Positions 947 to 18,590 of a stretch of 64,000 nt of DNA are shown here, piece after piece. A program made the position numbers and the translations under genes. The DNA is from Leptolyngbya sp. SIO1E4 (GTDB lineage Bacteria; Cyanobacteriota; Cyanobacteriia; Phormidesmidales; Phormidesmidaceae). Every line of letters starts with the position of its first letter. Position 1 is the first letter of the stretch. The stretch is from positions 570,001 to 634,000 of the forward strand of contig JAAHFU020000002.1 in NCBI GenBank assembly GCA_010672825.2, in the 5' to 3' direction. The notes under the pieces were generated by a model. It searched no databases, had not been told where the DNA came from, and saw nothing but the letters and a program-made list of their open reading frames with translations.

Positions 947-1894
947 TTATGATTTAACTAGTTTCTTCATCTTGGATCTTGCGGATCTGGCAAGATGTTC
1001 AAATTTGCGCTTGGTCGCTATCATCGTCGACAGTGGAAATAGCTTAGCCACAGGGGTCTGTGCCGTGTACCCAAGGCGATTCATTTCGAACCAGGTGATA
1101 CCTTCGATTGCGGCAATTTCTTCAGGCGAAAGATCACGCTGCCATTTCGTTAGCGATTGCTGGTTAACAGGTTTTACCGCAGCGCCTTTCCAGGGTTCTC
1201 GCTGCACATTCACTAGCTTTGTCTCCTTCTTGTGATAATCCAACATGGCTGGATCGAATGCTAAGTCCATGAACGTGCACAGCGATCGCAGGTGGGCCTC
1301 CGGTGACAAGACCAGCTGTTCGTAATGAACTGTGAAAATTTTGTTTGTTCCTTGAGGGGGCTGACGCCATGCCGCAGAGATGTGGAATCGCCAATGTTCA
1401 GCATCTTTGACAACGCTGCCGCTAGACCAAGGAACTGAACGCCAGGAATTCACGACAGCTCTGGGATCTCGGACAAGATGGATGAAACGTGCCTCGGGGA
1501 AAAACGCTTGAATTTTTGGAATATACAGCACATGGTTTGGAGTCTTCTCACCAATGACATTCACTTGCCGTTTGCTGGCAAATTGCTCTAAGAGCAGCGA
1601 GAAAATGGCTGCATAGCTTCTTGGAATCGTCCAGGCTGACTGAGAAAATTCTTGGGCATCTAGCTCCATCTCTAGAAACTCAGGAAGCGCAATGATGTTC
1701 TCTAGTAAACGCCGATAGTTTCCATCTTCAGCTAAATTCCCATACTGATCTCGTCGCCCCCAAAATAGCTGCATAAAATGCGTCTCAGGTGCGATCGCGA
1801 TGTCTGGATGTGCATCTAACATCTGTTGCAGCAGCGTTGTTCCAGAGCGAGGACAACCGACGATGAAAACCGGTTTTCTAGTGTTAGCTTGCAT
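947..1894 (-). CDS. Sulfotransferase family protein (Sulfotransfer_3 type)
   Basis: Predicted PAPS-dependent sulfotransferase, 315 residues, the usual size. The 5'-phosphosulfate loop GCPRSGTT is at residues 13-20, right after a hydrophobic first strand (VFIVG). The 3'-phosphate-binding segment RFIHLVRDPRAVVNSW is at about 136-151. GEKTPNH at 115-121 is also typical. It would transfer sulfate from PAPS to a hydroxyl, most likely on a sugar given the glycosyltransferase neighbours. The next sulfotransferase gene upstream ends only 10 bases away, so the two are probably co-transcribed. The acceptor is not predictable from sequence. Confidence 0.9.
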   Translation of the reverse strand: MQANTRKPVFIVGCPRSGTTLLQQMLDAHPDIAIAPETHFMQLFWGRRDQYGNLAEDGNYRRLLENIIALPEFLEMELDAQEFSQSAWTIPRSYAAIFSLLLEQFASKRQVNVIGEKTPNHVLYIPKIQAFFPEARFIHLVRDPRAVVNSWRSVPWSSGSVVKDAEHWRFHISAAWRQPPQGTNKIFTVHYEQLVLSPEAHLRSLCTFMDLAFDPAMLDYHKKETKLVNVQREPWKGAAVKPVNQQSLTKWQRDLSPEEIAAIEGITWFEMNRLGYTAQTPVAKLFPLSTMIATKRKFEHLARSARSKMKKLVKS

Positions 1895-1904
1895 TGACGA
1901 TAAA

Positions 1905-2852
1905 TCATTCCTCTAAATATCCGAGAGACGCTAGCATCTCTCTAGCTTCCTTGTAGACAAAGTGCAAATCTTCTTCTGAGAGTTCTTTGCGCCATTGCCC
2001 AACAGAGGTTGAGCGCACCTGTGAAACCGCATTTTGGAAATAAGCACGGGCCGTGGTCTGATATACATCTAGAAAATCTAGAAGACGATCTGCCTCTTGG
2101 GCAGGAGTAGCTACGAGAGATTCATAGCGGAGTTCATAATATTGACTTTCAGGAAGGGTTGCTGCGGCCTTTAATGCGCTCTCGGTATGTCGTCGCCAGG
2201 CCCATATACAGCGATGAATATCGCTAGTTGATTCAAATTCAGCAACCCGCTCTCTTTCAACCCAAAACCTGGCATAGGGCCCAATCCGAAATCCCCCCGG
2301 TTCAAATCCACCATCAGAGGCATGGGCCGCTTGCATCCAGGGCTTTTTGCTATGGGAAAGCGCCGCATCCCGACCATCACGAATAATATGGATAAACTGG
2401 GCATCCGGGAAAGTTTTATGCAGAAAATCAACTAAAAAACAATTGCGAGGCGTTTTCTCTGCGAACTGCAGATCGCCGTCTAGATGCTGCTGCATTAGCC
2501 ACGAATACATCCTGCGATAGTAACGCTGAGCTTTTCGAATATCCCACTCACCGGTAAAGATATAGTTGGCAGCGAACTTAGTGGCAATGGGTTCAAAATG
2601 ATAAGAAATTCCCGGAATTTTCTCTAGACAGGCTCCCAAAAAAGTAGTCCCTGAGCGAGGCGAACCAATTAAGAATATGGGCCGATTGAGGTTAGGTGAA
2701 AGATTCTTAAATATCCTGTCTAATGTGGTGGATCGAGATTTCTTATGATATTTTCGGCGATCTACCCTTAAGGTATTTTGAGTCAGTCTCAGAAAGTTAA
2801 AGTTACGGGCTTTAGCGGATGAGATATTCAAGCTGTTTCCTCGATTTATCAT
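1905..2852 (-). CDS. Sulfotransferase family protein (second copy, divergent)
   Basis: A second PAPS-dependent sulfotransferase of 315 residues. After a basic N-terminal extension of about 55 residues it shows FLIGSPRSGTTF (phosphosulfate loop, about 60-71), AEKTPRN (131-137) and QFIHIIRDGRDAALS (152-166). It is clearly related to the neighbour at 947-1894 by motif order but low in overall identity, so it probably sulfates a different position or sugar. The N-terminal extension has no obvious signal peptide. Start ATG at 2852 taken as the longest frame; a later start would still keep the catalytic core. Confidence 0.9.
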   Translation of the reverse strand: MINRGNSLNISSAKARNFNFLRLTQNTLRVDRRKYHKKSRSTTLDRIFKNLSPNLNRPIFLIGSPRSGTTFLGACLEKIPGISYHFEPIATKFAANYIFTGEWDIRKAQRYYRRMYSWLMQQHLDGDLQFAEKTPRNCFLVDFLHKTFPDAQFIHIIRDGRDAALSHSKKPWMQAAHASDGGFEPGGFRIGPYARFWVERERVAEFESTSDIHRCIWAWRRHTESALKAAATLPESQYYELRYESLVATPAQEADRLLDFLDVYQTTARAYFQNAVSQVRSTSVGQWRKELSEEDLHFVYKEAREMLASLGYLEE

Positions 2853-3304: not shown

Positions 3305-5275
3305 CTATGTACGGCCTGAATCCCGCTCAATTGTGACTAACTGATTAGGCGCCGGAGCCTTTACCTGTTGCAAATAGCCATCAGGCCAGAAAACGTTCAA
3401 AGCGTTGATTTGTGAGTTTTTTCCCAGCCCAAAATACATCCGGTAGTGCCCCTGTGACCGAATAGAATTATCCGCCTGACCCACCTGCTGATGCTGAACC
3501 CCATCGGCAGTAATCACCTCCACATGGGCACCAATGGCGGGTCGATTACCCTTAGGTCCAATCAACTGGAGTTGGAGCCAGCGATCGCTGGCTCCAACAT
3601 TTCGATACAGCACTATTTTCCACTCCGGCAGAGTAAATTTTTTATCGCGCTGCTGTTCGTAGACAAGCTGCTGCGGTTGCAATAGTGCTACCAGCTTCTG
3701 CTGCATCTTCTGCCATATCGTAGATGAGGCTTTCATGGCTATCAGCAAATCTTGCCTGCCATCATTGTCCGCATCAAACCAGGTGCAGAAGACATTACTC
3801 GTTTTCGAGACCTTACTCTCTAACAGATGAGTAGCTTCAAACTGATGTTCCCGTCGTTGCCGGTAAATCCCATCAGGAAAAACGTATAGATCAGTCAACC
3901 CATCGTTATCGTAATCAATCCAGTTAGCCGCAATGCTCTTGCTGGGTAACCCAACCGACTGAGGGTTCTCAATTTTGTAGGCACCATTGACATTCGACAG
4001 CAAAATGTTGCCTGTCTTCAGTGCTGTAAATACATCCAAATCACCATCTTGATCGTAGTCAGCAATTGTGAGTTGCCTCACCTTGCCAGCATGCCGCCCG
4101 ATAGATTGAGGTTTAAACCCGTCAGCATGATTGACGTACAACCAAAAGGTTTCATCATCTGCAAAGAGCAAGTCCATATCTTGGTCGTTGTCAGCATCTA
4201 ACCAGACAAAGGTACCTGCAGCCGGGATATCCAGCCCCCGTTCTGCTGCCACGTTTACAAATTGCCCCTCGGCCTTTTGCCAGTGCAGCTGATTTGGATA
4301 GAACTGTCTCGGTGGCTTACCCCTCCCGCAGCCAGTGTAAACATCGAGTTGATTATCGCTATCAAAATCGACCAAGGCTACCTGACGCCCCGGGCAAGCG
4401 TTCTTAACGATGCCAGAATTCAGGGTTCGATCCTCAAAGGTGAGGTCTTCCTTGAGCAATAACTCATCATTACTCCGCACGGGGTCGGGCCTCATCTTCC
4501 CACCCCCACCCCCGCGGATCACAAACACATCAGTTTGGGTATCGCCGTTAAAATCAGCCCAGGCCATTCCATGGCGGTCTCTGCCCGGATTGACCGTAAA
4601 CTCATGGGAATCAGGATGAACTTTTTCAGCGCCGATATAGATCTGATCCAGCGGCAGCCGTCCATCCAATTGGAAGGCAGGCGTAAAGAAGAAGCGTTGA
4701 GATTTTATTGTGAGCCGACCATTACTTCCGGACGTAAAGTCAACCATTAATTTTCCATCCTGCTTTTGGATGGTTGCATCAAAGCTACCGCTAGTTTTGA
4801 TAGCTACGGATTCAGGTAGTCGAATCTGTCCTCTAATGGGGTCAAGGTCAGCAGGCCGGCGCGATCGCACCACGAGGGCCGATTTATACCAATAGATATA
4901 AAGCCCAGAAACCTCGATCAGGGGTTCAATATCGGTAGGCCCAACCCCTGGCAAGCGAGGGTTCTGATAAAGCCCCAGGGTTACAAGCTGATCCGTAAAT
5001 TCTCCACGCTCATGATTGATAAGAATACTCTGTCGAGCACTATGGTTAACCGTGTAGACATCCAGCCAATTATCGTCGTTGATATCAGCAACCCCTAAAT
5101 CAAATAAATGGTGAGTTTCATCCAAGGAGTGCTGTGTAAACCAGCGCTCTGTTTTCAAAGGATTAACTGTGCTGTCTACTTGGGGCCACAACAACGCCAT
5201 ACTCAACGTTATCGTAGCGAGAGACACTATCCAATATATGCGGATGACTGAGGGATGGAAAAGATGCTTACCCAT
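3305..5275 (-). CDS. Membrane-anchored FG-GAP/VCBS repeat protein with ASPIC/UnbV domain (CRTAC1-like)
   Basis: 656 residues from the ATG at 5275 (an in-frame TTG lies at 5287). An N-terminal hydrophobic segment (about residues 10-35, IRIYWIVSLATITLSMALLW) predicts a signal anchor, so the rest is periplasmic or extracellular. At least seven calcium-loop FG-GAP-type repeats follow, for example ADINDDNWLDVY, ADFNGDTQTDVF, DFDSDNQLDVY, DADNDQDMDLL, ADYDQDGDLDVF, DYDNDGLTDLY and DADNDGRQDLL; these usually build a beta-propeller. The last 100 residues (GNRPAIGAHVEV…RSQGHYRMYFGLGK…VFWPDG) match the ASPIC/UnbV domain. The role is unknown; by position it may bind or process the surface polysaccharide. 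Confidence 0.85.
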   Translation of the reverse strand: MGKHLFHPSVIRIYWIVSLATITLSMALLWPQVDSTVNPLKTERWFTQHSLDETHHLFDLGVADINDDNWLDVYTVNHSARQSILINHERGEFTDQLVTLGLYQNPRLPGVGPTDIEPLIEVSGLYIYWYKSALVVRSRRPADLDPIRGQIRLPESVAIKTSGSFDATIQKQDGKLMVDFTSGSNGRLTIKSQRFFFTPAFQLDGRLPLDQIYIGAEKVHPDSHEFTVNPGRDRHGMAWADFNGDTQTDVFVIRGGGGGKMRPDPVRSNDELLLKEDLTFEDRTLNSGIVKNACPGRQVALVDFDSDNQLDVYTGCGRGKPPRQFYPNQLHWQKAEGQFVNVAAERGLDIPAAGTFVWLDADNDQDMDLLFADDETFWLYVNHADGFKPQSIGRHAGKVRQLTIADYDQDGDLDVFTALKTGNILLSNVNGAYKIENPQSVGLPSKSIAANWIDYDNDGLTDLYVFPDGIYRQRREHQFEATHLLESKVSKTSNVFCTWFDADNDGRQDLLIAMKASSTIWQKMQQKLVALLQPQQLVYEQQRDKKFTLPEWKIVLYRNVGASDRWLQLQLIGPKGNRPAIGAHVEVITADGVQHQQVGQADNSIRSQGHYRMYFGLGKNSQINALNVFWPDGYLQQVKAPAPNQLVTIERDSGRT

Positions 5276-6070
5276 AGGTCGACTCAAAATCTAATTTTTC
5301 AGAATCGAGACGATAGCAATATTCGCTTTGATCGACAGAAGTCATTCAGGGCCAATTTGAACAAGATCACTAATTTTCTTAATTAATTTCTCAGTCTGGC
5401 TCAGGCTTCTGCTTCTAGGACAGGCAAAGGGGGTATGAACATAGGTATAAGATAGTGCTCAGCCCATTCTATATAGCCTTGATAATTGGGCTAAGCGATC
5501 GCCCAGTCCTCCTAGCTGTAACTTGACAGCAAAAAATCGCTCTACTTGATTTTCTATTCTGCAGCAATTGTTCTTTTTCTGGATATCATTTAGTGTACTC
5601 ATTATGGCACTTCCGCTAAGCTTTACGAGCTTATACTGGCCAATCATATTCTTCAGAATTTCTAATTTAGATTTAGAATTGACACATAGACTATGATTAA
5701 CTGTATAAATTTGAGGTAACCATCGCCATAGGTGTTAGCAACACCAAGATTAGATAATGAGTAAGTTTTACCTAAAGAGTACCGTGCAAATTATCAGCAT
5801 TCTTTGAGAAAATTAGCCGCACAATATATCTGAGGTTATTATCATGACTTCTTTAAAACCATCGCAGCGAAAGAATCTATCCTGTATATGCAGACACGCG
5901 AGTGATAGTAAAGATGCCGCCCCACCTATCGACTTAAAACTTAAGTCTTGGAAGTTCATTGAATGATTATGCTCAACGAACTTCCAAGATTCAGATAAGT
6001 CGTCATTTAGCCTATAACTTATTCTTGCCTGAAGCTCATGCTTAGGCATATCATAAAAGTTTTACCGCTC
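5276..6070. other. Intergenic, AT-rich, no supported gene
   Basis: About 0.8 kb between two minus-strand genes. Short minus-strand frames at 5459-5647 and 5813-6049 have no recognisable motif and no convincing ribosome-binding site. The space is long enough for a promoter of the genes downstream on the minus strand. I see no clear terminator or repeat. Confidence 0.5.
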
Positions 6071-7171
6071 TTATACTAAAGCCTCTTTTAGAAAACGCTT
6101 AGATTGAGCAATCTCCTTTTCAAGGACTTGATTCACGGTAGAATAATCAACCGGAGATAGATGCTTAGATAGAGTATTTTCATTAACTCCATCTAGCAGC
6201 CGATCTTCCAATTTTAGTCTTCTCAACAAATCAGGTGTTTTACTTGCCTTACTCAATTTGTAGATGGACGTAAACTGCCTCTTGAATTTAATCGAAAAAA
6301 CAGTTCCATGGAAGAAATTAGTAATAACATAAGTAGCACCATGAAAGTAATTTATCCAATCAATCGGGCTGACTGACATCAGACTCTGGCCGAGTCCAAT
6401 CGGATCTCCAATCGAAATAACCTCTAAATTTTGGCTAGACGCAACTGATTTTACAAACGTTCGATGAGATTTGTTGAGCCCTCCTTCAATGTACAGGAGA
6501 AGATAAGGTTTTTGAGTCAAAGACGATGACTGAAAGAACTCACTGAAATCGATTAAAAATGTGGGGTCAAGCACCATGGTTGGAGGTCTTTCACATGTTT
6601 TACTTAATAAGTCACGGCTGTTAGCATCTCTGACAGATATCGCATCAAATTCTGAGATCAACGTGCCAATTTTTTCATCATGTGATCCCCAGGTTTGCGT
6701 GGTTCCACAACTGGCTGCGTAGCTTATTTTACGGGCTTTTTGAACATCCTTCGAAAAGTCCAAAAAGTATGTAGAATCAAAGCCTCGCATTGAGTCAATA
6801 CACCATACCTGATCGCTACCACAGACAATCACGTCATATTCTTTTGCCGCCCAGAACTCTTCTAGTTGCGCTCGATCATATAGTCTTGCTCTGCTGAGCT
6901 TTATATTCCACTTCAAGAAGTAGTGCATCCTGAAGTATTTTAGTAGCCCTGCCAAGGAATATTTTATTTTCTTCTTGACAGGAACTTTTCCAGCTATTGG
7001 CTTAGCTGCATTAAATATTTTTTTTCGATAGTGATTGATAGCAACTTGTGGTCTATAATCAATCACTTCCACATCATGATTTTGTCGTTTTAAGGTTTGT
7101 GATAGCGCATATGCTTGTAAGGTTGCCCCGTAATTAGTGGTGTGATGAAAGGTCAAAATTCCTATTTTCAT
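6071..7171 (-). CDS. Polysaccharide pyruvyl transferase family protein
   Basis: 366 residues. The N-terminus MKIGILTFHHTTNYGATLQA followed by YALSQTLKRQNHDVEVIDYRP is the hallmark opening of the polysaccharide pyruvyl transferase family (CsaB/WcaK type). Further family features are DVIVCGSDQVWC (about 113-124), ISYAASCG, AISVRDANSRDLL, VLDPTFLID and a C-terminal THFHG-like segment seen here as VITNFFHGTVFSIKF. Members transfer a pyruvate ketal from phosphoenolpyruvate to a glycan, or are GT-B-like relatives of unknown activity. It lies in the exopolysaccharide cluster, 51 bases after the MurB-like gene, so probably in the same operon. Pyruvylation is inferred, not shown. Confidence 0.85.
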   Translation of the reverse strand: MKIGILTFHHTTNYGATLQAYALSQTLKRQNHDVEVIDYRPQVAINHYRKKIFNAAKPIAGKVPVKKKIKYSLAGLLKYFRMHYFLKWNIKLSRARLYDRAQLEEFWAAKEYDVIVCGSDQVWCIDSMRGFDSTYFLDFSKDVQKARKISYAASCGTTQTWGSHDEKIGTLISEFDAISVRDANSRDLLSKTCERPPTMVLDPTFLIDFSEFFQSSSLTQKPYLLLYIEGGLNKSHRTFVKSVASSQNLEVISIGDPIGLGQSLMSVSPIDWINYFHGATYVITNFFHGTVFSIKFKRQFTSIYKLSKASKTPDLLRRLKLEDRLLDGVNENTLSKHLSPVDYSTVNQVLEKEIAQSKRFLKEALV

Positions 7172-7222: not shown

Positions 7223-8125
7223 TCATTCAACTACAATGATTTCAAGCACTGGCTTTTTCCGTTTGATGGCATGAAGAAGTTTCGCAATCAGGATTAATAT
7301 CTTGATATTGATAGGGCTATCTGACTTATTAGATATCCAATTATTCGTTTTCTCTGAGAATTTTGCTTTGCCAACGCGATAACCTTTCAGTTTTGACAAT
7401 ATCTGATAGTCAAATTTCTTAAAGACTGAGCCACAGCTAGGAGCAGAATAGTCCTGATTCTTTTTAGACCACCTACACCTTTCCTGGATTGGATTACCAT
7501 TCAAGCTACACTTATCAAACTCAAATACTGCACTTATGACAAAAGAGCTTTGTATCCCTGTAAAGATCGTATTCCTATAACCTAAGACAATGTCTTCTGG
7601 TTTTAACGTCTTGACACATCCGTCTTTAGAATCGAAGAAGTCAACACTTTTGACGTGATCATAAATCGAAACATTAAATTTCTTGCCGCGTCCAGCATTC
7701 ATTGCTAATGCACCACCCACTGTAGCCGGAACAGATGCCAGGTAATAAAAGGAGTCCAGAGAATTTTCGTAACAGTACTTCAGAACCTCTCTGACTTGAA
7801 CTGAGGAAGAAACTTTAATTTGATTATCGGATAACACCTCAATTGATTTTGGAATCTGATTTCTTAACACAACTGTTTTGATATTTTTTCTTCCAAACAG
7901 TGTGTTAGAACCATTCCCCAATATATATATTTGAAAGTCATTCTCTTTGGCCCAATTAAAGTACTCGATAAATTCTCCGGGGCTTTGGAAATCAGCATAC
8001 GAATTAAAAGTGTTCTCTGTTCGGTAATATGAAAGCTGATTAGTTGTGATTTGCTGGATGTTACCTATTTTGGTCAGTTTTTGATCAACAACCATATCAG
8101 TCTCTCTCTTTGAGGTATAATTCAT
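7223..8125 (-). CDS. MurB-like FAD-binding oxidoreductase, divergent paralogue in polysaccharide cluster
   Basis: 300 residues resembling UDP-N-acetylenolpyruvoylglucosamine reductase. FAD-binding parts are clear: LGNGSNTLFG (69-78), SVPATVGGALAMNAG (131-145), LGYRNTIF (181-188) and SCGSVFKKF (230-238), the last holding the serine that protonates the product in MurB. The usual HANFIVN block is replaced by EKTNNWISN (258-266), and the C-terminal L-E-x-E-V segment with the catalytic glutamate reads VLEIIVVE, so that glutamate appears absent. It is therefore probably not the housekeeping MurB but a paralogue acting on another sugar nucleotide or flavin substrate. An alternative start is the ATG at 8095. 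Confidence 0.8.
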   Translation of the reverse strand: MNYTSKRETDMVVDQKLTKIGNIQQITTNQLSYYRTENTFNSYADFQSPGEFIEYFNWAKENDFQIYILGNGSNTLFGRKNIKTVVLRNQIPKSIEVLSDNQIKVSSSVQVREVLKYCYENSLDSFYYLASVPATVGGALAMNAGRGKKFNVSIYDHVKSVDFFDSKDGCVKTLKPEDIVLGYRNTIFTGIQSSFVISAVFEFDKCSLNGNPIQERCRWSKKNQDYSAPSCGSVFKKFDYQILSKLKGYRVGKAKFSEKTNNWISNKSDSPINIKILILIAKLLHAIKRKKPVLEIIVVE

Positions 8126-8260: not shown

Positions 8261-9163
8261 CTAGCTGTTTCTGAGCACGCCAAACTCACCATAAAATTTC
8301 TGAATGGGAAAATCACTGATGAGTTTATCTTGGTGAACTTCTCCTTGCCTAGGGCCATCATGATTACCATGGCCACACCCTTTGGCTGCACCAATCAATG
8401 ACAGTGAAGAGAATTTGAAGTACGCATTTTGGTTGATATGTCTGCCCAAAATGTTCACAATACTGTCTTCAGTATGATAGGTTGACTTTGAGCGATCGCT
8501 GAGCCAAACAACCGGTTCTTCAGGAACCTTCAAAGACGCATTTGGCAGTTTAGAAGGCCAGCAGCTAAATTTCTCAGTGATATTAGTATCAATAGATTTT
8601 AGCCTTCTCATCAATGGCTTGGGCTTGAAAATCCGACAGGAACCACAGGAATGATCAAAGTTTCTAATTTGATAGGCAGCTTCATATTCTATAGAATATT
8701 GAGGGGTAACTTCCAGATTGATATGAAGTCCCTGTTTGATCATGTAACCATCCGACAGCTTATTAAAATGGTTTTTCCAAATCAACGACTTAGCTAGATT
8801 GATATTCACATAGTCGTCAGCATCCATCGGCATAATTAAAGCTGGATTTAAATTCTTTTTTGCATATAAAATTCCAATGATATATTTCAGACCTTTATCT
8901 ACTCTGACAGGGTTTGTGTTAGGTGGAAAGACAGACAGATTTGAAACATCTAAGAACGTTACCTGATTGCTATAATCACTAGACCATAAAGGAACTTGAT
9001 GACAAACAACCACGACATGGGTATTTTCCCAGGTTTGTCGAGTTAGCGATCGCACTGTCTCGTGCAAAGCCGTTTCAATGCATTGATAATTGCTGACCTT
9101 ATCATCCTCTGGATTCCGGACAGGAATCACAAACACAAAAGAATTACGCGCTTTGCCACTCAT
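8261..9163 (-). CDS. Glycosyltransferase-like protein, GT-A fold
   Basis: About 300 residues from the ATG at 9163; the frame extends to a TTG at 9235, but the family core begins just after MSGKARNS, which favours 9163. It starts with FVFVIPVRNPEDD, has a nucleotide-sugar fold pattern (LTRQTWENTHVVVVC) and a DXD-type metal site in IMPMDADDYVN. It is not a close match to ordinary GT2 enzymes; the layout is nearer to rhamnosyltransferase-like GT-A proteins. The C-terminal region with CGSC and several His is unassigned. It sits between a GT2 gene (27 bases from the TTG frame) and the MurB-like gene, in the same direction, so probably part of the polysaccharide operon. Confidence 0.7.
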   Translation of the reverse strand: MSGKARNSFVFVIPVRNPEDDKVSNYQCIETALHETVRSLTRQTWENTHVVVVCHQVPLWSSDYSNQVTFLDVSNLSVFPPNTNPVRVDKGLKYIIGILYAKKNLNPALIMPMDADDYVNINLAKSLIWKNHFNKLSDGYMIKQGLHINLEVTPQYSIEYEAAYQIRNFDHSCGSCRIFKPKPLMRRLKSIDTNITEKFSCWPSKLPNASLKVPEEPVVWLSDRSKSTYHTEDSIVNILGRHINQNAYFKFSSLSLIGAAKGCGHGNHDGPRQGEVHQDKLISDFPIQKFYGEFGVLRNS

Positions 9164-9262
9164 TGATTTCTGTTCTGCTAAAAAACTGACTGTATTCTGA
9201 CAGCAAGAAAATTCTTGAGGCCTTAGTTCATCCAATCAAGCACTTATGACCCAGCTGGTTCT

Positions 9263-10354
9263 TTATTTAGCTAAAAGCACTTTCTGGTTTGGCTGTTTGT
9301 GCCGCCATTTTCCATTGCGGACTGTTTGAATACTGATGTCATAAGCCTTACGACTGCTTAATAGCTCCAAAAGTCTGCCGATTTTGATTTCAATTCGCAA
9401 GACTTCACGATTCCCCTCCATGGGGCTAAGCAGCGAGGCAACCAACCTATCCGGACGCTTAAGCAGCTCTTTCAACACGGAAAGTGCCTGAAAATACCAG
9501 GTTTGTCGATTACAGTCTTGCTGAGATTGCCTCGCGACATTCCACCAAAAAGCAATTTGGCTCTCACTGCCACTTTCTTGTAAGGCAAATCGGTAAGGAT
9601 CAAACCCAAGGGTTGCCTTACCTCCATTTCTAGATAAGCGCCGCAAGTAAGACCATTGCAGACGTTCAGATTGTAAGTGATGACGGAGTGTCAGCCGGGG
9701 GTCGTACCATAACCGCCACCCCGCTAACACGAATGCAAACGACAGTTCAGTATCTTCCCCCCGATTCAAGGCTTTCCCTTTACAGCCAACCAACAAGGAA
9801 TTAAATCCTTCATCCACAAGGTTCTGCCAGGCCAACTTCCGAATAGTCAGGCCTGCGCCAATCAGGCGCCCCCTCGACCAGGTGATATCTCCTCCTTCTT
9901 CAGGTCCTTGGGTACCAACGGCATAACTCCTAGGACTGAGATCGAACCACCAGGGTTTCTCCCCATCAAATTCTGGAATGTTATGTCCGCCACACGCCGC
10001 TACTTCAGGGTGTTGACTCATGACCTCTGATACCGTTTGCACCCAGTTCGGGCAAACCCAGTTGTCATCATCGATAAAGCTGAGAATCTCATATTTGGCC
10101 TCTGCTAATGCCCGATATCGGGCATTGATCAACCCTAAATTAGGCTCATGAACCACCCTTAGTGGAGCAGGTGCAGCCTCTGGCCAGCAAGACTGAGCCA
10201 CTTGTGCTGTGTGATCTGTTGATGCATTATCGATGATCAAAACTTCCCACAAAACATCTGAAGAAACCTGCTGGACTGCCAAATGTTGAATTGTTTGTGG
10301 CAACTCTTGAGCACTATTATGGCAACAGATAATAACGCTAACGCCTAAGTGCAT
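9263..10354 (-). CDS. Glycosyltransferase family 2
   Basis: 363 residues. The N-terminus VSVIICCHNSAQELPQT, then WEVLIIDNASTDHT, then EILSFIDDDNWVCPNW, gives the GT2 nucleotide-binding aspartates and the DXD motif (DDD). The middle segment GAGLTIRKLAW and RGEDTELSFAFVLAGW (the ED acceptor-side motif) completes the GT-A catalytic core. No membrane segments, so probably a cytoplasmic or peripheral enzyme adding one sugar to a lipid-linked repeat unit. The sugar and linkage cannot be told. Confidence 0.9.
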   Translation of the reverse strand: MHLGVSVIICCHNSAQELPQTIQHLAVQQVSSDVLWEVLIIDNASTDHTAQVAQSCWPEAAPAPLRVVHEPNLGLINARYRALAEAKYEILSFIDDDNWVCPNWVQTVSEVMSQHPEVAACGGHNIPEFDGEKPWWFDLSPRSYAVGTQGPEEGGDITWSRGRLIGAGLTIRKLAWQNLVDEGFNSLLVGCKGKALNRGEDTELSFAFVLAGWRLWYDPRLTLRHHLQSERLQWSYLRRLSRNGGKATLGFDPYRFALQESGSESQIAFWWNVARQSQQDCNRQTWYFQALSVLKELLKRPDRLVASLLSPMEGNREVLRIEIKIGRLLELLSSRKAYDISIQTVRNGKWRHKQPNQKVLLAK

Positions 10355-10384
10355 ACTTAATTTCTCACCTCACAGTGGCATCTA

Positions 10385-11320
10385 TCAATTGGCTAAAGAT
10401 TTCTGTTGACCCAAATTTTTAGAGGCTCTCAGCACCATCTTCCAACGTTCTAAGGAATAGGGTTGACGTGCTAAGAGAATCAAAGAATGTTTGAGACCCG
10501 TCAAAAAATAGCCCTGAGCCATGGCCGTTCTTGCCCAGTGACTCCTGCTTTCGATGGGAGACAAAATTTGTTGGGTCTTTAACAAATTATCTGGAAGCTC
10601 ACCCAGACCTCGATCTAACCAGGCTTGCCGGACAATTTCTTGAACCTTTTCGAGCTGCACCACTCGCTTTTGATCAGTTGTTCTCTTACAGTGAAGGCGA
10701 TATTGTATCAAAACCTGGGGCAGATTCGCGAGCTTACCCACCTCAGATAGTCGGATAAATAAATCCAAATCTTCAGCAGGTTCAAGTTCACGATTATAGC
10801 CACCAATTTTTTTCAGCGCAGCGCGAGGAAACATCGCACTCGGATGGTTAATAACTCCCCCTTTACCATTTAAAAATGCATGGAGGATTTCTTCATGTTG
10901 AGTAGGCTGTCCCTTAACCCCAATGGGCAAACCGCTGGGATCAATCCTCAATATCTCAGAGCCTACAGCTACACAGTCAGGATTTTGAGTTAAGAACTTT
11001 AGCTGGATCTCAAATCGATTTTTCATCGCAATATCGTCTGAGTCCATACGGGCAATGAATTTGCCCTTAGACTTTTGCAATCCTTCATTGAGTAGCAGCG
11101 TTAAGCCACCATGCTCTCGCAGAAACAATTGAATTCTTGGATCTTTAGCGGCATACTGCTGCAGTCGCTCCCGTGAACCATCTGTAGACCCATCATCAAA
11201 GATTAAAAGCTCAAAGTCTTCGAAACTTTGCTGTAAGATACTCTCGATCGCGAAATCTAAATAACGCAGAGAGTTGTAAACGGGCATGATTACGGAAATG
11301 AGTGGGCTTGAATCGACCAT
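10385..11320 (-). CDS. Glycosyltransferase family 2
   Basis: 311 residues. ISVIMPVYNSLRYLDFAIES, FELLIFDDGSTDGS, GKFIARMDSDDIAM (DXD motif DSD) and EPAEDLDLFIRLSE (ED motif) are the standard GT2 landmarks. It resembles the gene at 11479-12501 in motif wording and may be an old duplicate. 30 bases separate it from the next downstream gene, consistent with one transcript. Sugar specificity unknown. Confidence 0.9.
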   Translation of the reverse strand: MVDSSPLISVIMPVYNSLRYLDFAIESILQQSFEDFELLIFDDGSTDGSRERLQQYAAKDPRIQLFLREHGGLTLLLNEGLQKSKGKFIARMDSDDIAMKNRFEIQLKFLTQNPDCVAVGSEILRIDPSGLPIGVKGQPTQHEEILHAFLNGKGGVINHPSAMFPRAALKKIGGYNRELEPAEDLDLFIRLSEVGKLANLPQVLIQYRLHCKRTTDQKRVVQLEKVQEIVRQAWLDRGLGELPDNLLKTQQILSPIESRSHWARTAMAQGYFLTGLKHSLILLARQPYSLERWKMVLRASKNLGQQKSLAN

Positions 11321-11478
11321 TAGGTATTTCCCAAATTACTGAGAGCAATGTATTTTACAAACAAGTACTTCATCAAACATTGATCCGATGGAATCTACCA
11401 GAAGTACTTTTTCGCACAGCAAATGGTGAGCCCCCTGTCCTTAAAGACACTGCCGCTTCGTCAAAAGCCATTCGCAAT

Positions 11479-12501
11479 TTATTGCTGTAGGATTAACTCC
11501 GGTGACCAACGAAGAGCCAGCAAGTATATTTGTGTTTTTGCCAATGGCTGACTTCGCAAGCTCAACCGATTTGCCCAATCTAAAAACTTTTGCCCAATCA
11601 AAGTACTTAAAAGCCGTTTTGTCTTAGGGGTTTGATGCGCAACATAAGCTTGATAAACGGCCTCTAACTGATGGCTAAGGCAACTTGCAAGTTCAGTCTT
11701 AGGAAATCTATCTGCTTTAGTGCCCTCGTCAGTGGACCAAAAGCGATGGAGATTCTCAACTTCAGTTAGTGCCAGCGCCTTACCTGTCAACTGCTCAATA
11801 TTTTGAGCCACTTGATTGAAAACCAAGGCACTCTGCTCTGAGCGTTTGTTAGCTGAGATACTGGTACCGTGAAATCGCTGGTGTAGTAAGACATCTGGCA
11901 ACACATCCAGATTGCCAACTTTGGCTAACCGGCACCATAGCTCATAATCCTGACTGTAGCGATAGGCTTCATTGTAGCCACCCAAGTCCAGGACAGGTTG
12001 ACGCCGAAACATCACCTGGCTGTGGCCACCTAAGTGATTGTGAAACAATAAATGCCAGGGCAGCAGATCAGACGAGCAGGCCCTTTGACTGACATTCCCC
12101 AAAGTGCCATTGGGTTTGATCCTCTGAATTTCAGAAGACACTAAGGCAGTTTCAGGATGCCTCGTCAGCCAAGCAACTTGTTTTTCAAAGCGACTCGGCA
12201 TTGAAATATCATCAGCATCTTGCCGGGCAACATACTCACCTCGGGCAAGATTGAGCCCTTTATTTAAGGACTTAGTGAGACCAATATTTTGCGCATTTCG
12301 GAGCACATAAATCCTGTCATCACGGCTCAGATACTGCTTTAAAGTAGATTCAGTATCATCGGATGAACAATCATCAATAATGATGAACTCAAAATCAGAG
12401 AAGCTTTGATTCAAAATGCTGTCTATTGACTCTCTCAAGTAATCAAGAGAGCCATTATAGACTGACATAACAACACTAACGGTAGGAACTGAATGAATCA
12501 T
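11479..12501 (-). CDS. Glycosyltransferase family 2
   Basis: 340 residues. VSVVMSVYNGSLDYLRESID, FEFIIIDDCSSDDT, GEYVARQDADDISMPSRFE (DXD) and YSQDYELWCRLAKVG are present in GT2 order. The tail after about residue 230 is helical and unassigned. It begins the block of five same-direction sugar-transfer genes running down to 6071. Upstream (12502-12985) is a 480-base AT-rich gap that could hold the promoter. Confidence 0.9.
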   Translation of the reverse strand: MIHSVPTVSVVMSVYNGSLDYLRESIDSILNQSFSDFEFIIIDDCSSDDTESTLKQYLSRDDRIYVLRNAQNIGLTKSLNKGLNLARGEYVARQDADDISMPSRFEKQVAWLTRHPETALVSSEIQRIKPNGTLGNVSQRACSSDLLPWHLLFHNHLGGHSQVMFRRQPVLDLGGYNEAYRYSQDYELWCRLAKVGNLDVLPDVLLHQRFHGTSISANKRSEQSALVFNQVAQNIEQLTGKALALTEVENLHRFWSTDEGTKADRFPKTELASCLSHQLEAVYQAYVAHQTPKTKRLLSTLIGQKFLDWANRLSLRSQPLAKTQIYLLALRWSPELILQQ

Positions 12502-12985: not shown

Positions 12986-13708
12986 CTAGAATTCATAGTC
13001 AAATAACTGGATGTCTTTTGAGTATCTTTTCTCAAAAATATTCAAGGCTTCATCTGTATAATATTCTCTATATTTTGCATGACGAGTTCTATTGGACTTA
13101 GGGAGATGTATCTCTGGTTTATTCAATCTTTTGAAGATGTAATGAAAGTCTTGATCGATGTTTTCAAATTTTCCAATAAAGTCTGCAATCAGTTCACCTT
13201 CTTTATCCGTCAAAAAGGTATGCTGAGATCTGAAGTGTTGTTCCGCTTCGCAATCGGGAATCTCTGAAACTGCCTTTAAAAATTCTTCAAAGGGCATATT
13301 TGCCTCGAAGATCCCATATTTCAAAAATCCTTTATGTACTCCATTTTCAAAGGAGTTTGTCTTGCCAAAAAAGTTCTTATCAGGTTTAATTTTTTCTGAA
13401 TAGCAAGAGACTAGCCTGTCCCATGGATTTCTAACGAAACAGAATTTCCAATAATCATCATATTTACAAAGTGAATCCTTATCAACCACTGGAAATTCCG
13501 CTCGGTGAATATTAGCTCCATCAAGAGGTATTTCAATCTTAAGTAAGTTCGCAATTACTCTCTTGATACTAGAACAAGCAACCTTAGGTATAGGTATGTA
13601 GAGTGCCTTTAAAGGAGCTATCTTAATAATTTTCTCGCTATAATTTGTTGCTTTCTTATTTTTATTCACTTTTACTAAACCTAAAGTTTTTCGAATCAGA
13701 CTGCTCAT
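12986..13708 (-). CDS. Sulfotransferase family 2 domain protein (carbohydrate sulfotransferase type)
   Basis: 240 residues. LYIPIPKVACSSIKRVIANL (about 35-54) is the 5'-phosphosulfate segment of the Sulfotransfer_2 family, in which K-x-x-x-(S/T) replaces the classical P-loop, and FCFVRNPWDRLVSCYSEK (about 88-105) is its 3'-phosphate segment (FVRNPWDRLVS). This family includes chondroitin/HNK-1-type carbohydrate sulfotransferases, so it differs from the two Sulfotransfer_3 genes at 947-2852. It makes a sugar acceptor likely. No signal peptide or membrane anchor, unlike the eukaryotic Golgi forms. Confidence 0.9.
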   Translation of the reverse strand: MSSLIRKTLGLVKVNKNKKATNYSEKIIKIAPLKALYIPIPKVACSSIKRVIANLLKIEIPLDGANIHRAEFPVVDKDSLCKYDDYWKFCFVRNPWDRLVSCYSEKIKPDKNFFGKTNSFENGVHKGFLKYGIFEANMPFEEFLKAVSEIPDCEAEQHFRSQHTFLTDKEGELIADFIGKFENIDQDFHYIFKRLNKPEIHLPKSNRTRHAKYREYYTDEALNIFEKRYSKDIQLFDYEF

Positions 13709-13736: not shown

Positions 13737-14942
13737 TTATTGATGAAATCCCAAAAATGGTAATCGTCTGAAAGTGAATTCTTCCTTGAGATTGCATTTG
13801 TTATCTTCCCGTACAGTCAAAAGTATACCTAGAAGACGAAACCATGTTGAAAAAGCATTACTGTGAGATCTTTCACAAGAAAGTAACTTCCAGCAGACAT
13901 GATAGGTTCCTGCCGTTGGCACACGAACTGCAGGTGATATCATTTTCGATAAACCTAGTGTCTTCAAAATTTTAAACTTCTTCCCTCCACGAGGCTGTAG
14001 CTTCTCCTTGCTGTCTGCAAAACCACCATCTTCAGCACTATACAAACCTAGGAGTGCTTGATAAGCACTTTTCATTGATTGCTGCACATCTTTTGCGCGG
14101 TAATCAGTCATGGCTGAGGCTTTAGCTAGAAGATCGATCGCATCGTAGTCTAAGCAGGTTTGGCCAATCACATTCCCTTCGCTAAACAACCCATGAGACT
14201 GCTGTAAGCTCAGACAAGAATCAATGATTCGTTCTAGGTGCTGAAGCGGACGTCCGCGATAGAAGTAGAAAAAAGTAAAGTGAAACGTGGCTGCCATGGC
14301 ATTGACCAACGACACTTCATACGGTCCTTTCCACAAACCTGTTGCTGGGCTTTGGTGAGCATCAAGCCAGTCTAAGGCAGTATCGACATGCTGTAGCAAC
14401 TCTGGGCGATTATGACGTTCAGCATCGTGGCAGAGTTGACTCAAAAGAAACATGACGGGATTTGAATCCATCCATGGATCTTGCCAAGCGAGTGAATCAA
14501 AATAGTGAGTAATACCGTCCTTAATTCGTGGATCAGACTCCCAATCGCGGGGTGGGGGTGGAGGTGCTGACAACGCATCTAAAGCCTGCTGACAGATAGA
14601 CGTTGTTTCTTCCTGGAAATAGGCAAGGCTATGCTTCTCACTCAATGAATCGTTAATATCAAACAGTGGATCAGCAAACGAACCATCGGCCTTAGCATTC
14701 CCCATTAAGTAATCGATAGCAGCTGCTTTCTGAGCAGAGTTGAGATGATTGAGTCCGCCTAAAAGCTCGAGCCCAAGGACGACATAGGAGGTTGCCATCA
14801 AGGTTGCTGGCTGTGCAGTTGTGAAGCGAAATCCGCCTGTTTCTCCATCCCAAAGACCTAGAAAGTATTCAAGACTCTTCTCATAAAGGCTTTGAGAGCG
14901 AGTAGGCTTAACACTTTGTCTTTGAAAAAAGGAAGTTTGCAT
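13737..14942 (-). CDS. Alpha/alpha-toroid (terpene cyclase/prenyltransferase-like) hypothetical protein
   Basis: 401 residues without a known enzyme name. It has repeated Gly-rich turns between helices of the alpha/alpha-toroid type: LWDGETGGFRF, GNAKADGSFADP, QSPATGLWKGP, QQSHGLFSEG, SAEDGGFADS. This is the fold of squalene-hopene cyclases, prenyltransferases and some polysaccharide-modifying proteins. The cyclase catalytic DXDD motif is not visible. A poly-proline run (APPPPPR, about 123-129) splits two helical parts. The C-terminal segment with TYHVCWKLLSCERSHSN is distinctive. It is 28 bases upstream of the sulfotransferase gene, suggesting a shared role in glycan synthesis. Confidence 0.6.
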   Translation of the reverse strand: MQTSFFQRQSVKPTRSQSLYEKSLEYFLGLWDGETGGFRFTTAQPATLMATSYVVLGLELLGGLNHLNSAQKAAAIDYLMGNAKADGSFADPLFDINDSLSEKHSLAYFQEETTSICQQALDALSAPPPPPRDWESDPRIKDGITHYFDSLAWQDPWMDSNPVMFLLSQLCHDAERHNRPELLQHVDTALDWLDAHQSPATGLWKGPYEVSLVNAMAATFHFTFFYFYRGRPLQHLERIIDSCLSLQQSHGLFSEGNVIGQTCLDYDAIDLLAKASAMTDYRAKDVQQSMKSAYQALLGLYSAEDGGFADSKEKLQPRGGKKFKILKTLGLSKMISPAVRVPTAGTYHVCWKLLSCERSHSNAFSTWFRLLGILLTVREDNKCNLKEEFTFRRLPFLGFHQ

Positions 14943-17435: not shown

Positions 17436-18590
17436 CTAGCCCTTTAAATCACCAATAATAGAGTCTAAACTGTCACTGACTTCAATCCCATTCTTGATTA
17501 TAAGAGCTTTATATTCACGAGCAATTCTAGCTCTATTTTTGTCGAAGGCCTTACCGTCAAAGATAGTTTCACTACGTACTTCTTGGATATTACGAGCCTT
17601 GAGAAACTTATTTTTTGAGATGTGAGGAATAGCGGTTACGCTACAAAGTTCTTGAGTTCTTGAGTCATGATAGATACAGATTCCTGGTATTCCTGCCTGT
17701 GTTGCCAACATATTGCCATGCATGCGTGTTCCAATAGACATGTCGAAGGAAGATAAGAACTCAATCCAGGCACCAGCATCAAAGAAAACTCGGAAGTATT
17801 GCCTAATAAAAGTCATAAACTGTGAGCGAGATTGAAAATGCCGATGGATTCTAGGCCTCAGGTACCGATGTAAGTTATCTATCCATTCGTCTGAAATTTC
17901 ACCTTGCCCTTCTCGTGCCAACGAAACTAAACGTAAGGGAGACTGAGTGACATACACGCCTTTATGTTGAAGGAGAAAACTGATTAATCTTCTTTCAATA
18001 TTCTTCAAATGCTCCTTTTTAGGCATCCCAGCAGTTACGACTAAATTTTGAGGAGCAATATGACGAAGCTTTTGATGAATAATCTCTCCTAATGTTGGAG
18101 TTGAATTAATTAATAGAGAAGGGCAACCCAAAACAGCCGTATTCTTAATACCAATATTAGCTAAGGCAGCTGCAGTATATTCGCCGCGAACACCAATAAT
18201 ATGAGATCTTTCAGAAACTGCCTTCATCCATCTTTTAGTATCTTCTTTCAACTTCAACTCATGATCCAAACTAGGCGCCTGTGCACCTAATCCTACAACT
18301 AGGCAAGGTAGATCAACTGCTTCAACAAATTTAGCTCTTCGTGCATGCGTGTGCTCACTCTCTGGATTGAGTGAATTTGCAGAAGGAAATACAAGCACAT
18401 CACAAGTATCTCTCACCAGGTCAGGATCAGAAGTACTTGAAAAGAAAAACTTTTCTGAAGCTATATGATTGGCTACAGCATAGCGAAAAGCTAAATTGCC
18501 TGTATTATTGTTCGCCTTCCATAAGGCTTCGGTAGACATTTCAAAGCTATTCTGGAAGCGTCCTGGATTTCCAATAATGCCAACTCGCAT
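17436..18590 (-). CDS. Polysaccharide pyruvyl transferase family protein (second copy)
   Basis: 384 residues. Opening MRVGIIGNPGRFQNS, then CDVLVFPSANSLN, LVVGLGAQAP, IIGVRGEYTAAALANIGI, VLGCPSLLIN and, near residue 275, FDMSIGTRMHGNMLATQAG. The G-T-R-x-H-G motif in the last is the most conserved part of the polysaccharide pyruvyl transferase family. It is better conserved than the gene at 6071-7171, so this is the stronger candidate for true pyruvylation from phosphoenolpyruvate. It is the first of the long minus-strand run of sugar-transfer genes after the ABC exporter. Confidence 0.88.
   Translation of the reverse strand: MRVGIIGNPGRFQNSFEMSTEALWKANNNTGNLAFRYAVANHIASEKFFFSSTSDPDLVRDTCDVLVFPSANSLNPESEHTHARRAKFVEAVDLPCLVVGLGAQAPSLDHELKLKEDTKRWMKAVSERSHIIGVRGEYTAAALANIGIKNTAVLGCPSLLINSTPTLGEIIHQKLRHIAPQNLVVTAGMPKKEHLKNIERRLISFLLQHKGVYVTQSPLRLVSLAREGQGEISDEWIDNLHRYLRPRIHRHFQSRSQFMTFIRQYFRVFFDAGAWIEFLSSFDMSIGTRMHGNMLATQAGIPGICIYHDSRTQELCSVTAIPHISKNKFLKARNIQEVRSETIFDGKAFDKNRARIAREYKALIIKNGIEVSDSLDSIIGDLKG

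What the first reader, a model, noticed from the sequence alone, without database searches (positions are those of the whole stretch)
7223..8125. MurB-like flavoprotein in a glycan cluster lacking two catalytic segments
The FAD-binding motifs and the CGSVFK serine are intact, but the HANFIVN block reads EKTNNWISN and the C-terminal L-E-x-E-V segment reads VLEIIVVE, so the glutamate that acts with the serine in MurB seems lost. A MurB fold without the acid partner, next to pyruvyl transferases, could reduce or bind an enolpyruvyl sugar for the polysaccharide instead of peptidoglycan.
Basis: partly seen in the sequence, partly recalled or inferred. Interest (0 to 1): 0.6.

Follow-up and report, generated by a model that had tools for sequence, protein, structure and literature searches.

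The report
MurB-like reductase for lactyl-decorated glycans
A relative of the cell-wall enzyme MurB sits beside a pyruvyl transferase in a sugar-polymer gene cluster, keeps its whole catalytic triad, and together with that partner most likely adds lactic-acid groups to surface sugars; in other microbes the same kind of transferase is paired or fused with one of two unrelated flavin reductases instead.

Summary
The ORF is real (minus strand, 8125..7223, 300 aa) and the genome has a canonical murC-murB elsewhere. The key claim is wrong: the catalytic glutamate is kept (E295 = E. coli E325), two residues out of register. Arg159 and Ser229 equivalents are also kept. Real differences are HANFI->KTxNWI and a shortened loop after the serine motif.

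The functional guess fares better. The ORF belongs to a separate MurB-like clade (10 members, support 95/93) in which every member adjoins a polysaccharide pyruvyl transferase (PS_pyruv_trans): seven cyanobacterial loci, Cetobacterium, Novosphingobium and a haloarchaeon, Natrinema, whose group makes no peptidoglycan. These transferases share a subfamily (GSD[QE]xW, no Arg before the His). Elsewhere the same subfamily adjoins, or is fused to, FrhB-type or nitroreductase-type flavoproteins, with at least nine partner changes on the transferase tree. The E. coli O124/O164 O-antigen cluster carries such a pair; O124 is chemically known for a lactyl ether (4-O-[(R)-1-carboxyethyl]-glucose).

Best model: the transferase attaches an enolpyruvyl group to a glycan precursor, and an interchangeable flavin reductase, here MurB-like, reduces it to a lactyl ether. 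Pairing, residues and swaps are shown; the chemistry is inferred.

The parts
7223..8125 (-). MurB-like flavoprotein reductase (300 aa, P0001)
7574..7576 (-). codon of R184 (= E. coli MurB R159)
7427..7429 (-). codon of S233 (= E. coli MurB S229, proton donor; Thr in three cyanobacterial relatives)
7346..7348 (-). codon of T260, in place of the His of HANFI (Gln288 in E. coli); Thr in all 7 cyanobacterial members
7241..7243 (-). codon of E295 (= E. coli MurB E325), the glutamate said to be lost
6071..7171 (-). PS_pyruv_trans partner (366 aa), GSDQxW / TNFFHG type, 51 bp downstream
   Evidence: PF04230 4.8e-35
17436..18590 (-). second PS_pyruv_trans, ketal-type (TRMHG motif), not part of the module
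8261..9235 (-). upstream ORF in the same cluster, no Pfam match, looks like a family-2 glycosyltransferase by eye
9263..12501 (-). three GT2 glycosyltransferases (9263-10354 HpsE-like, 10385-11320, 11479-12501)
12986..13708 (-). sulfotransferase of the same cluster
947..2852 (-). two further sulfotransferases (947-1894, 1905-2852)

Best explanation
The ORF is a flavin-dependent enolpyruvyl-ether reductase devoted to an extracellular polysaccharide. It works with the adjacent PS_pyruv_trans. The transferase moves an enolpyruvyl group from PEP onto a hydroxyl of a sugar in the cytoplasmic repeat-unit precursor; the MurB-like protein, charged by NAD(P)H through FAD, delivers hydride to the enolpyruvyl double bond, with Ser233 as proton donor and Arg184/Glu295 stabilising the intermediate, as in MurB. 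The product is a 1-carboxyethyl (lactyl) ether, as known from cyanobacterial exopolysaccharides (nosturonic acid, 4-O-lactyl-mannose). Shown: fold, triad, separate clade, constant adjacency, partner swaps and fusions, and presence of such a module in the O124/O164 cluster. Inferred: the enolpyruvyl intermediate, the product, the acceptor sugar and the stereochemistry.
For: (1) MurB fold over the full length: AF2 pLDDT 84, Foldseek ranks 1-18 all MurB; R159/S229/E325 kept. (2) All 10 members of the clade (95/93) adjoin PS_pyruv_trans, gap -17 to 80 bp, in either gene order. (3) Member in the haloarchaeon Natrinema, gene overlapping the transferase, beside a flippase and glycosyltransferases; MurB_C is absent from all four archaeal control genomes. 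(4) The genome has only two EPSP-synthase-family genes, so no spare MurA, and has its own canonical murB. (5) The same transferase subfamily is paired or fused with FrhB or nitroreductase (fusion); at least 9 partner changes on its tree. (6) Control: 0 of 26 other PS_pyruv_trans loci have a MurB-like or FrhB neighbour, 1 of 26 a nitroreductase; Fisher p = 0.001 for 5/8 against 1/26. (7) E. coli O124/O164 clusters hold wzx-FrhB-PS_pyruv_trans plus only glycosyltransferases, wzy and glf; a lactyl ether, 4-O-[(R)-1-carboxyethyl]-glucose, is known from Shigella dysenteriae O-antigen (PMC10609480). O124 was named as a test before it was seen (note).
Against: No enzyme of this module has been assayed here, and no polysaccharide from a MurB-type locus has a known structure here. 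The equivalence of O124 with S. dysenteriae type 3 is from memory. Three of 12 cyanobacterial, 3 of 16 plasmid and 5 of 22 gut-cyanobacterial loci of the transferase subfamily showed no recognised reductase nearby. Nitroreductase homologues on Rhizobium plasmids also occur without the transferase, and two nitroreductases adjoin ketal-type transferases. hhalign did not extend over the C-terminal tail. Three cyanobacterial members have Thr for the catalytic Ser. Several deep branches are long.
Confidence: 0.75

Rival explanations
1. A second MurB: it reduces UDP-GlcNAc-enolpyruvate made by the house MurA, giving UDP-MurNAc (or an isomer) for the polysaccharide.
For: The triad is kept. Some relatives do have a second MurA-MurB pair in exopolysaccharide clusters (G022, G035, G015).
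Against: Those MurA-linked copies form a different, fully supported clade with intact HANWI and loop. The window clade is always beside PS_pyruv_trans instead, also in a haloarchaeon, and has lost the conserved AG.LI[ED]Q.GLKG stretch. FrhB and nitroreductases in the same position have no known link to UDP-MurNAc.
Confidence: 0.1
2. It does not act on pyruvyl groups but oxidises or epimerises a sugar of the repeat unit (DprE1-like use of the fold), and adjacency only reflects the shared cluster.
For: DprE1 structures follow the MurBs in the fold search.
Against: The MurB-specific triad is conserved. Adjacency is to one gene only, in either order, across phyla and an archaeon, and three unrelated reductase families alternate beside the same transferase subfamily, including fusions.
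Confidence: 0.07
3. A catalytically dead MurB-like binding protein.
For: HANFI is replaced and MurB_C scores at the cut-off.
Against: Glu295, Arg184, Ser233 and the FAD motifs are kept across the members over large sequence distances (Ser to Thr in three).
Confidence: 0.04

Closest known systems
MurB, UDP-N-acetylenolpyruvoylglucosamine reductase (type II, e.g. S. aureus 1hsk, L. monocytogenes 3tx1)
   Same: Full-length fold, FAD domain, Arg/Ser/Glu triad; presumably the same chemistry, enolpyruvyl to lactyl
   Different: Separate clade; shortened after SVFK; Thr for the His of HANFI; far below the murB equivalog cut-offs; partner is PS_pyruv_trans, not MurA; not in a mur operon
Polysaccharide pyruvyl transferases CsaB, WcaK (ketal-forming)
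   Same: The partner gene belongs to PF04230
   Different: The partner's subfamily lacks the Arg of the R-x-H motif (Pvg1p R337-L338-H339 are modelled to contact PEP, PMC6801904), has GSD[QE]xW, and is joined to flavin reductases
FrhB-PS_pyruv_trans pair of the E. coli O124/O164 O-antigen cluster
   Same: Same transferase subfamily joined to a flavin reductase, in a cluster for a polysaccharide with a known lactyl ether
   Different: The reductase is an unrelated protein family (FrhB, not MurB)
MurA-MurB pairs inside cyanobacterial exopolysaccharide clusters (G022, G035, G015)
   Same: Second MurB in a polysaccharide cluster next to a PEP-using transferase
   Different: Transferase is a MurA homologue; reductase clade and loop are canonical

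Membership tests
MurB (EC 1.3.1.98) | FAD_binding_4 domain and MurB_C domain above curated cut-off | tested here: inconclusive
   FAD_binding_4 54.1 bits against 26.4; MurB_C 26.6 against 27, 28.5 in the genome search; other clade members mostly below or without a match
MurB (EC 1.3.1.98) | Score above an NCBIfam murB equivalog cut-off | tested here: not met
   Best 125.1 against 259 (NF010480) and 96.7 against 144.5 (TIGR00179)
MurB (EC 1.3.1.98) | Catalytic Arg159, Ser229, Glu325 | tested here: met
   R184, S233, E295 in three alignment modes
MurB (EC 1.3.1.98) | Groups with canonical MurBs in a tree | tested here: not met
   Clade of its own, 95/93
MurB (EC 1.3.1.98) | Reduces UDP-GlcNAc-enolpyruvate for peptidoglycan | not testable with these tools
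   A canonical murC-murB is elsewhere in the genome, so this copy is not needed for it
Transferase plus flavin-reductase lactyl-ether module (proposed here) | Adjacent PS_pyruv_trans of GSD[QE]xW type without Arg before the catalytic His | tested here: met
Transferase plus flavin-reductase lactyl-ether module (proposed here) | Cluster product carries a lactyl ether | not testable with these tools
   Product of this cluster unknown; known only for the O124-type cluster
Ketal-type pyruvyl transferase (CsaB/WcaK), for the partner gene | R-x-H motif and CsaB model match | tested here: not met
   TNFFHG instead of xRxH; no NCBIfam match

The most novel reading that the evidence does not exclude
A general, so far unassigned route to lactyl (1-carboxyethyl) ethers on microbial surface glycans: one subfamily of 'pyruvyl transferases' is really an enolpyruvyl-ether transferase, and its product is reduced by any of three unrelated flavoprotein families (MurB-like, FrhB-like, nitroreductase-like) that have replaced one another repeatedly, in bacteria and in an archaeon without peptidoglycan.
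Probability: 0.65. Interest if true: 0.85.

Novelty: new variant of a known kind. Interest (0 to 1): 0.75.

Why it matters
Lactyl ethers occur in many bacterial O-antigens, capsules and cyanobacterial slimes (PMC10609480, PMC5983295, PMC8466920), but no gene assignment for them was found in the papers searched. This points to the genes, explains the puzzling 'F420 hydrogenase beta subunit' and 'nitroreductase' annotations in polysaccharide loci, shows MurB chemistry used outside peptidoglycan (also in a haloarchaeon), and warns that PF04230 proteins should not all be read as ketal pyruvyl transferases.

Tried and rejected
Loss of the glutamate: rejected. First AF2 model with 5 sequences was poor (pLDDT 56) and was not used; a 34-sequence alignment gave 84. 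hhalign between the clade and canonical MurBs matched well (99.9%) but stopped before the tail, so the glutamate rests on multiple alignments and the bridging sequences. FrhB DNA from a gut cyanobacterium, and FrhB-transferase DNA from a Klebsiella plasmid, gave no useful E. coli match; the E. coli plasmid pair did, and led to O124/O164. Rhizobium plasmid nitroreductases are not next to the transferase. Plasmid MurBs of Priestia and Stenotrophomonas are ordinary MurB-like genes without the transferase. Literature searches for the pairing (MurB, F420 hydrogenase or nitroreductase with pyruvyl transferase, or lactyl ether with pyruvyl transferase genes) found no paper on it; the library is partial. 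Other lactyl serotypes (O58, Klebsiella K37/K66) could not be looked up.

Full report
Observation. The ORF is on the minus strand (8125..7223), 300 aa, intact. Pfam finds FAD_binding_4 (1.8e-14) and MurB_C at its threshold; NCBIfam murB equivalogs match weakly, far under their cut-offs. All sequence matches in the PDB are MurBs. The genome (8.2 Mb, a cyanobacterium by its relatives) has one other MurB, canonical, right after murC, and only two EPSP-synthase-family genes, read as MurA and AroA.

The glutamate. In a 34-sequence alignment E295 falls in an invariant column with the canonical glutamate. With the real E. coli K-12 sequence three MAFFT modes agree: R159=R184, K217=K221, S229=S233, E325=E295. 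Divergent relatives bridge the two forms (TEVILWK in Cetobacterium, TPEVEWKI in Natrinema). hhalign did not reach the tail. An AF2 model (pLDDT 84) matches MurB structures over the full length (ranks 1-18). So the triad is present. Real, clade-wide differences in the cyanobacterial members are KTxNWI for HANFI and loss of the AG.LI[ED]Q.GLKG stretch; three members have Thr for Ser229.

Relatives. Close relatives (51-54%) are rare: two of 386 genomes in a phylum sample, the window's own included, plus G002, G047 (two copies), a Synechococcales MAG (L003 = G517), G464, and a damaged or truncated Okeania copy. Each of the seven intact copies adjoins a PS_pyruv_trans gene (gap -14 to 80 bp); in L003 the order is reversed. 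The plasmid collection added Natrinema pellirubrum (haloarchaeon), Cetobacterium somerae and Novosphingobium sp. P6W, each with the transferase directly upstream. These ten form one clade, support 95/93, apart from canonical MurBs and from MurA-linked copies in other cyanobacterial exopolysaccharide clusters.

The transferase. The window partner belongs to a PF04230 subfamily with GSD[QE]xW and without the Arg of R-x-H. All 27 subfamily members compared have this form; ketal-type WcaK, the second window transferase and the other controls have the Arg. In Pvg1p that Arg is modelled to contact PEP (PMC6801904). The subfamily is joined to other flavoproteins elsewhere: fused to FrhB in gut cyanobacteria (16 of 22 loci, one more adjacent) and in Marinibacterium; beside FrhB in Klebsiella aerogenes, Pseudobutyrivibrio, Ensifer, Sinorhizobium, Bacteroides and, two genes away, Lactiplantibacillus; beside or near nitroreductases in two cyanobacteria, an E. 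coli plasmid, Allorhizobium and Lactiplantibacillus; fused to a nitroreductase in Paracoccus alcaliphilus. On an IQ-TREE phylogeny of the transferase the partner type changes at least nine times, with supported neighbours of different type.

Control. Of 30 PF04230 loci drawn from the class, 26 are not of this subfamily: none has a MurB-like or FrhB neighbour and one has a nitroreductase. Of eight subfamily loci found through the transferase alone (window left out), five have a flavin reductase within about 1.4 kb (Fisher p = 0.001). The three without one (G075, G475, G353) have none within about 9 kb either.

Chemical anchor. Before looking, E. coli O124 was noted as a test because its O-antigen carries a lactyl ether. 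The search then returned five E. coli genomes whose O-antigen cluster, annotated O124/O164 by its wzx and wzy, holds FrhB and PS_pyruv_trans side by side. The other genes are glycosyltransferases, wzx, wzy and glf, so by elimination the pair is the only candidate for the lactyl ether. The ether 4-O-[(R)-1-carboxyethyl]-D-glucose is reported for S. dysenteriae (PMC10609480); that O124 equals S. dysenteriae type 3 is from memory. Lactyl ethers are also known in cyanobacterial polysaccharides: 3-O-lactyl-glucuronate in Nostoc commune (PMC5983295) and 4-O-lactyl-mannose in Cyanospira capsulata (PMC8466920).

Mechanism. Steps shown: fold, triad, co-location, fusions and swaps. Steps inferred: enolpyruvyl transfer by the transferase, reduction by the flavoprotein in the manner of MurB, lactyl ether as product. 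The acceptor sugar is unknown. A haloarchaeal member makes a peptidoglycan role unlikely for the clade; archaeal control genomes lack MurB_C.

Verdict. Observation partly confirmed, central claim (lost glutamate) refuted, functional idea supported and extended.

Noticed in passing
L019:8268-10444, L020:8168-10439, L021:6913-9084: Three relatives (G022, G035, G015) carry a second MurA-MurB pair inside exopolysaccharide clusters, with the triad intact, besides their canonical murB: probably another route to lactyl sugars.
   Followed up: partly
L134:8013-10669 (G531) and L143:3863-6239 (Pseudorhodobacter turbinis): A nitroreductase of the same type adjoins a ketal-type (R-x-H) PS_pyruv_trans, so the reductase link may reach beyond the GSDQ subfamily.
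   Followed up: no
L148:8148-9283: In three of five E. coli O124/O164 genomes the PS_pyruv_trans gene is annotated as two pieces; in two others it is one intact gene.
   Followed up: no
window 947-2852 and 12986-13708: Three sulfotransferase genes flank the module, suggesting a sulfated polysaccharide.
   Followed up: partly
window 13737-14942: Prenyltransferase alpha-alpha-toroid-like protein inside a polysaccharide cluster.
   Followed up: no
window 3305-5287: FG-GAP repeat protein with a UnbV/ASPIC domain just downstream of the transferase.
   Followed up: no
L004:1-527: Okeania copy of the MurB-like gene is cut by the contig end and out of frame in places.
   Followed up: no
NC_011003.1:83136-83870 (Burkholderia cenocepacia plasmid): Plasmid-borne murB next to a carbamoyltransferase, in three records.
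   Followed up: no
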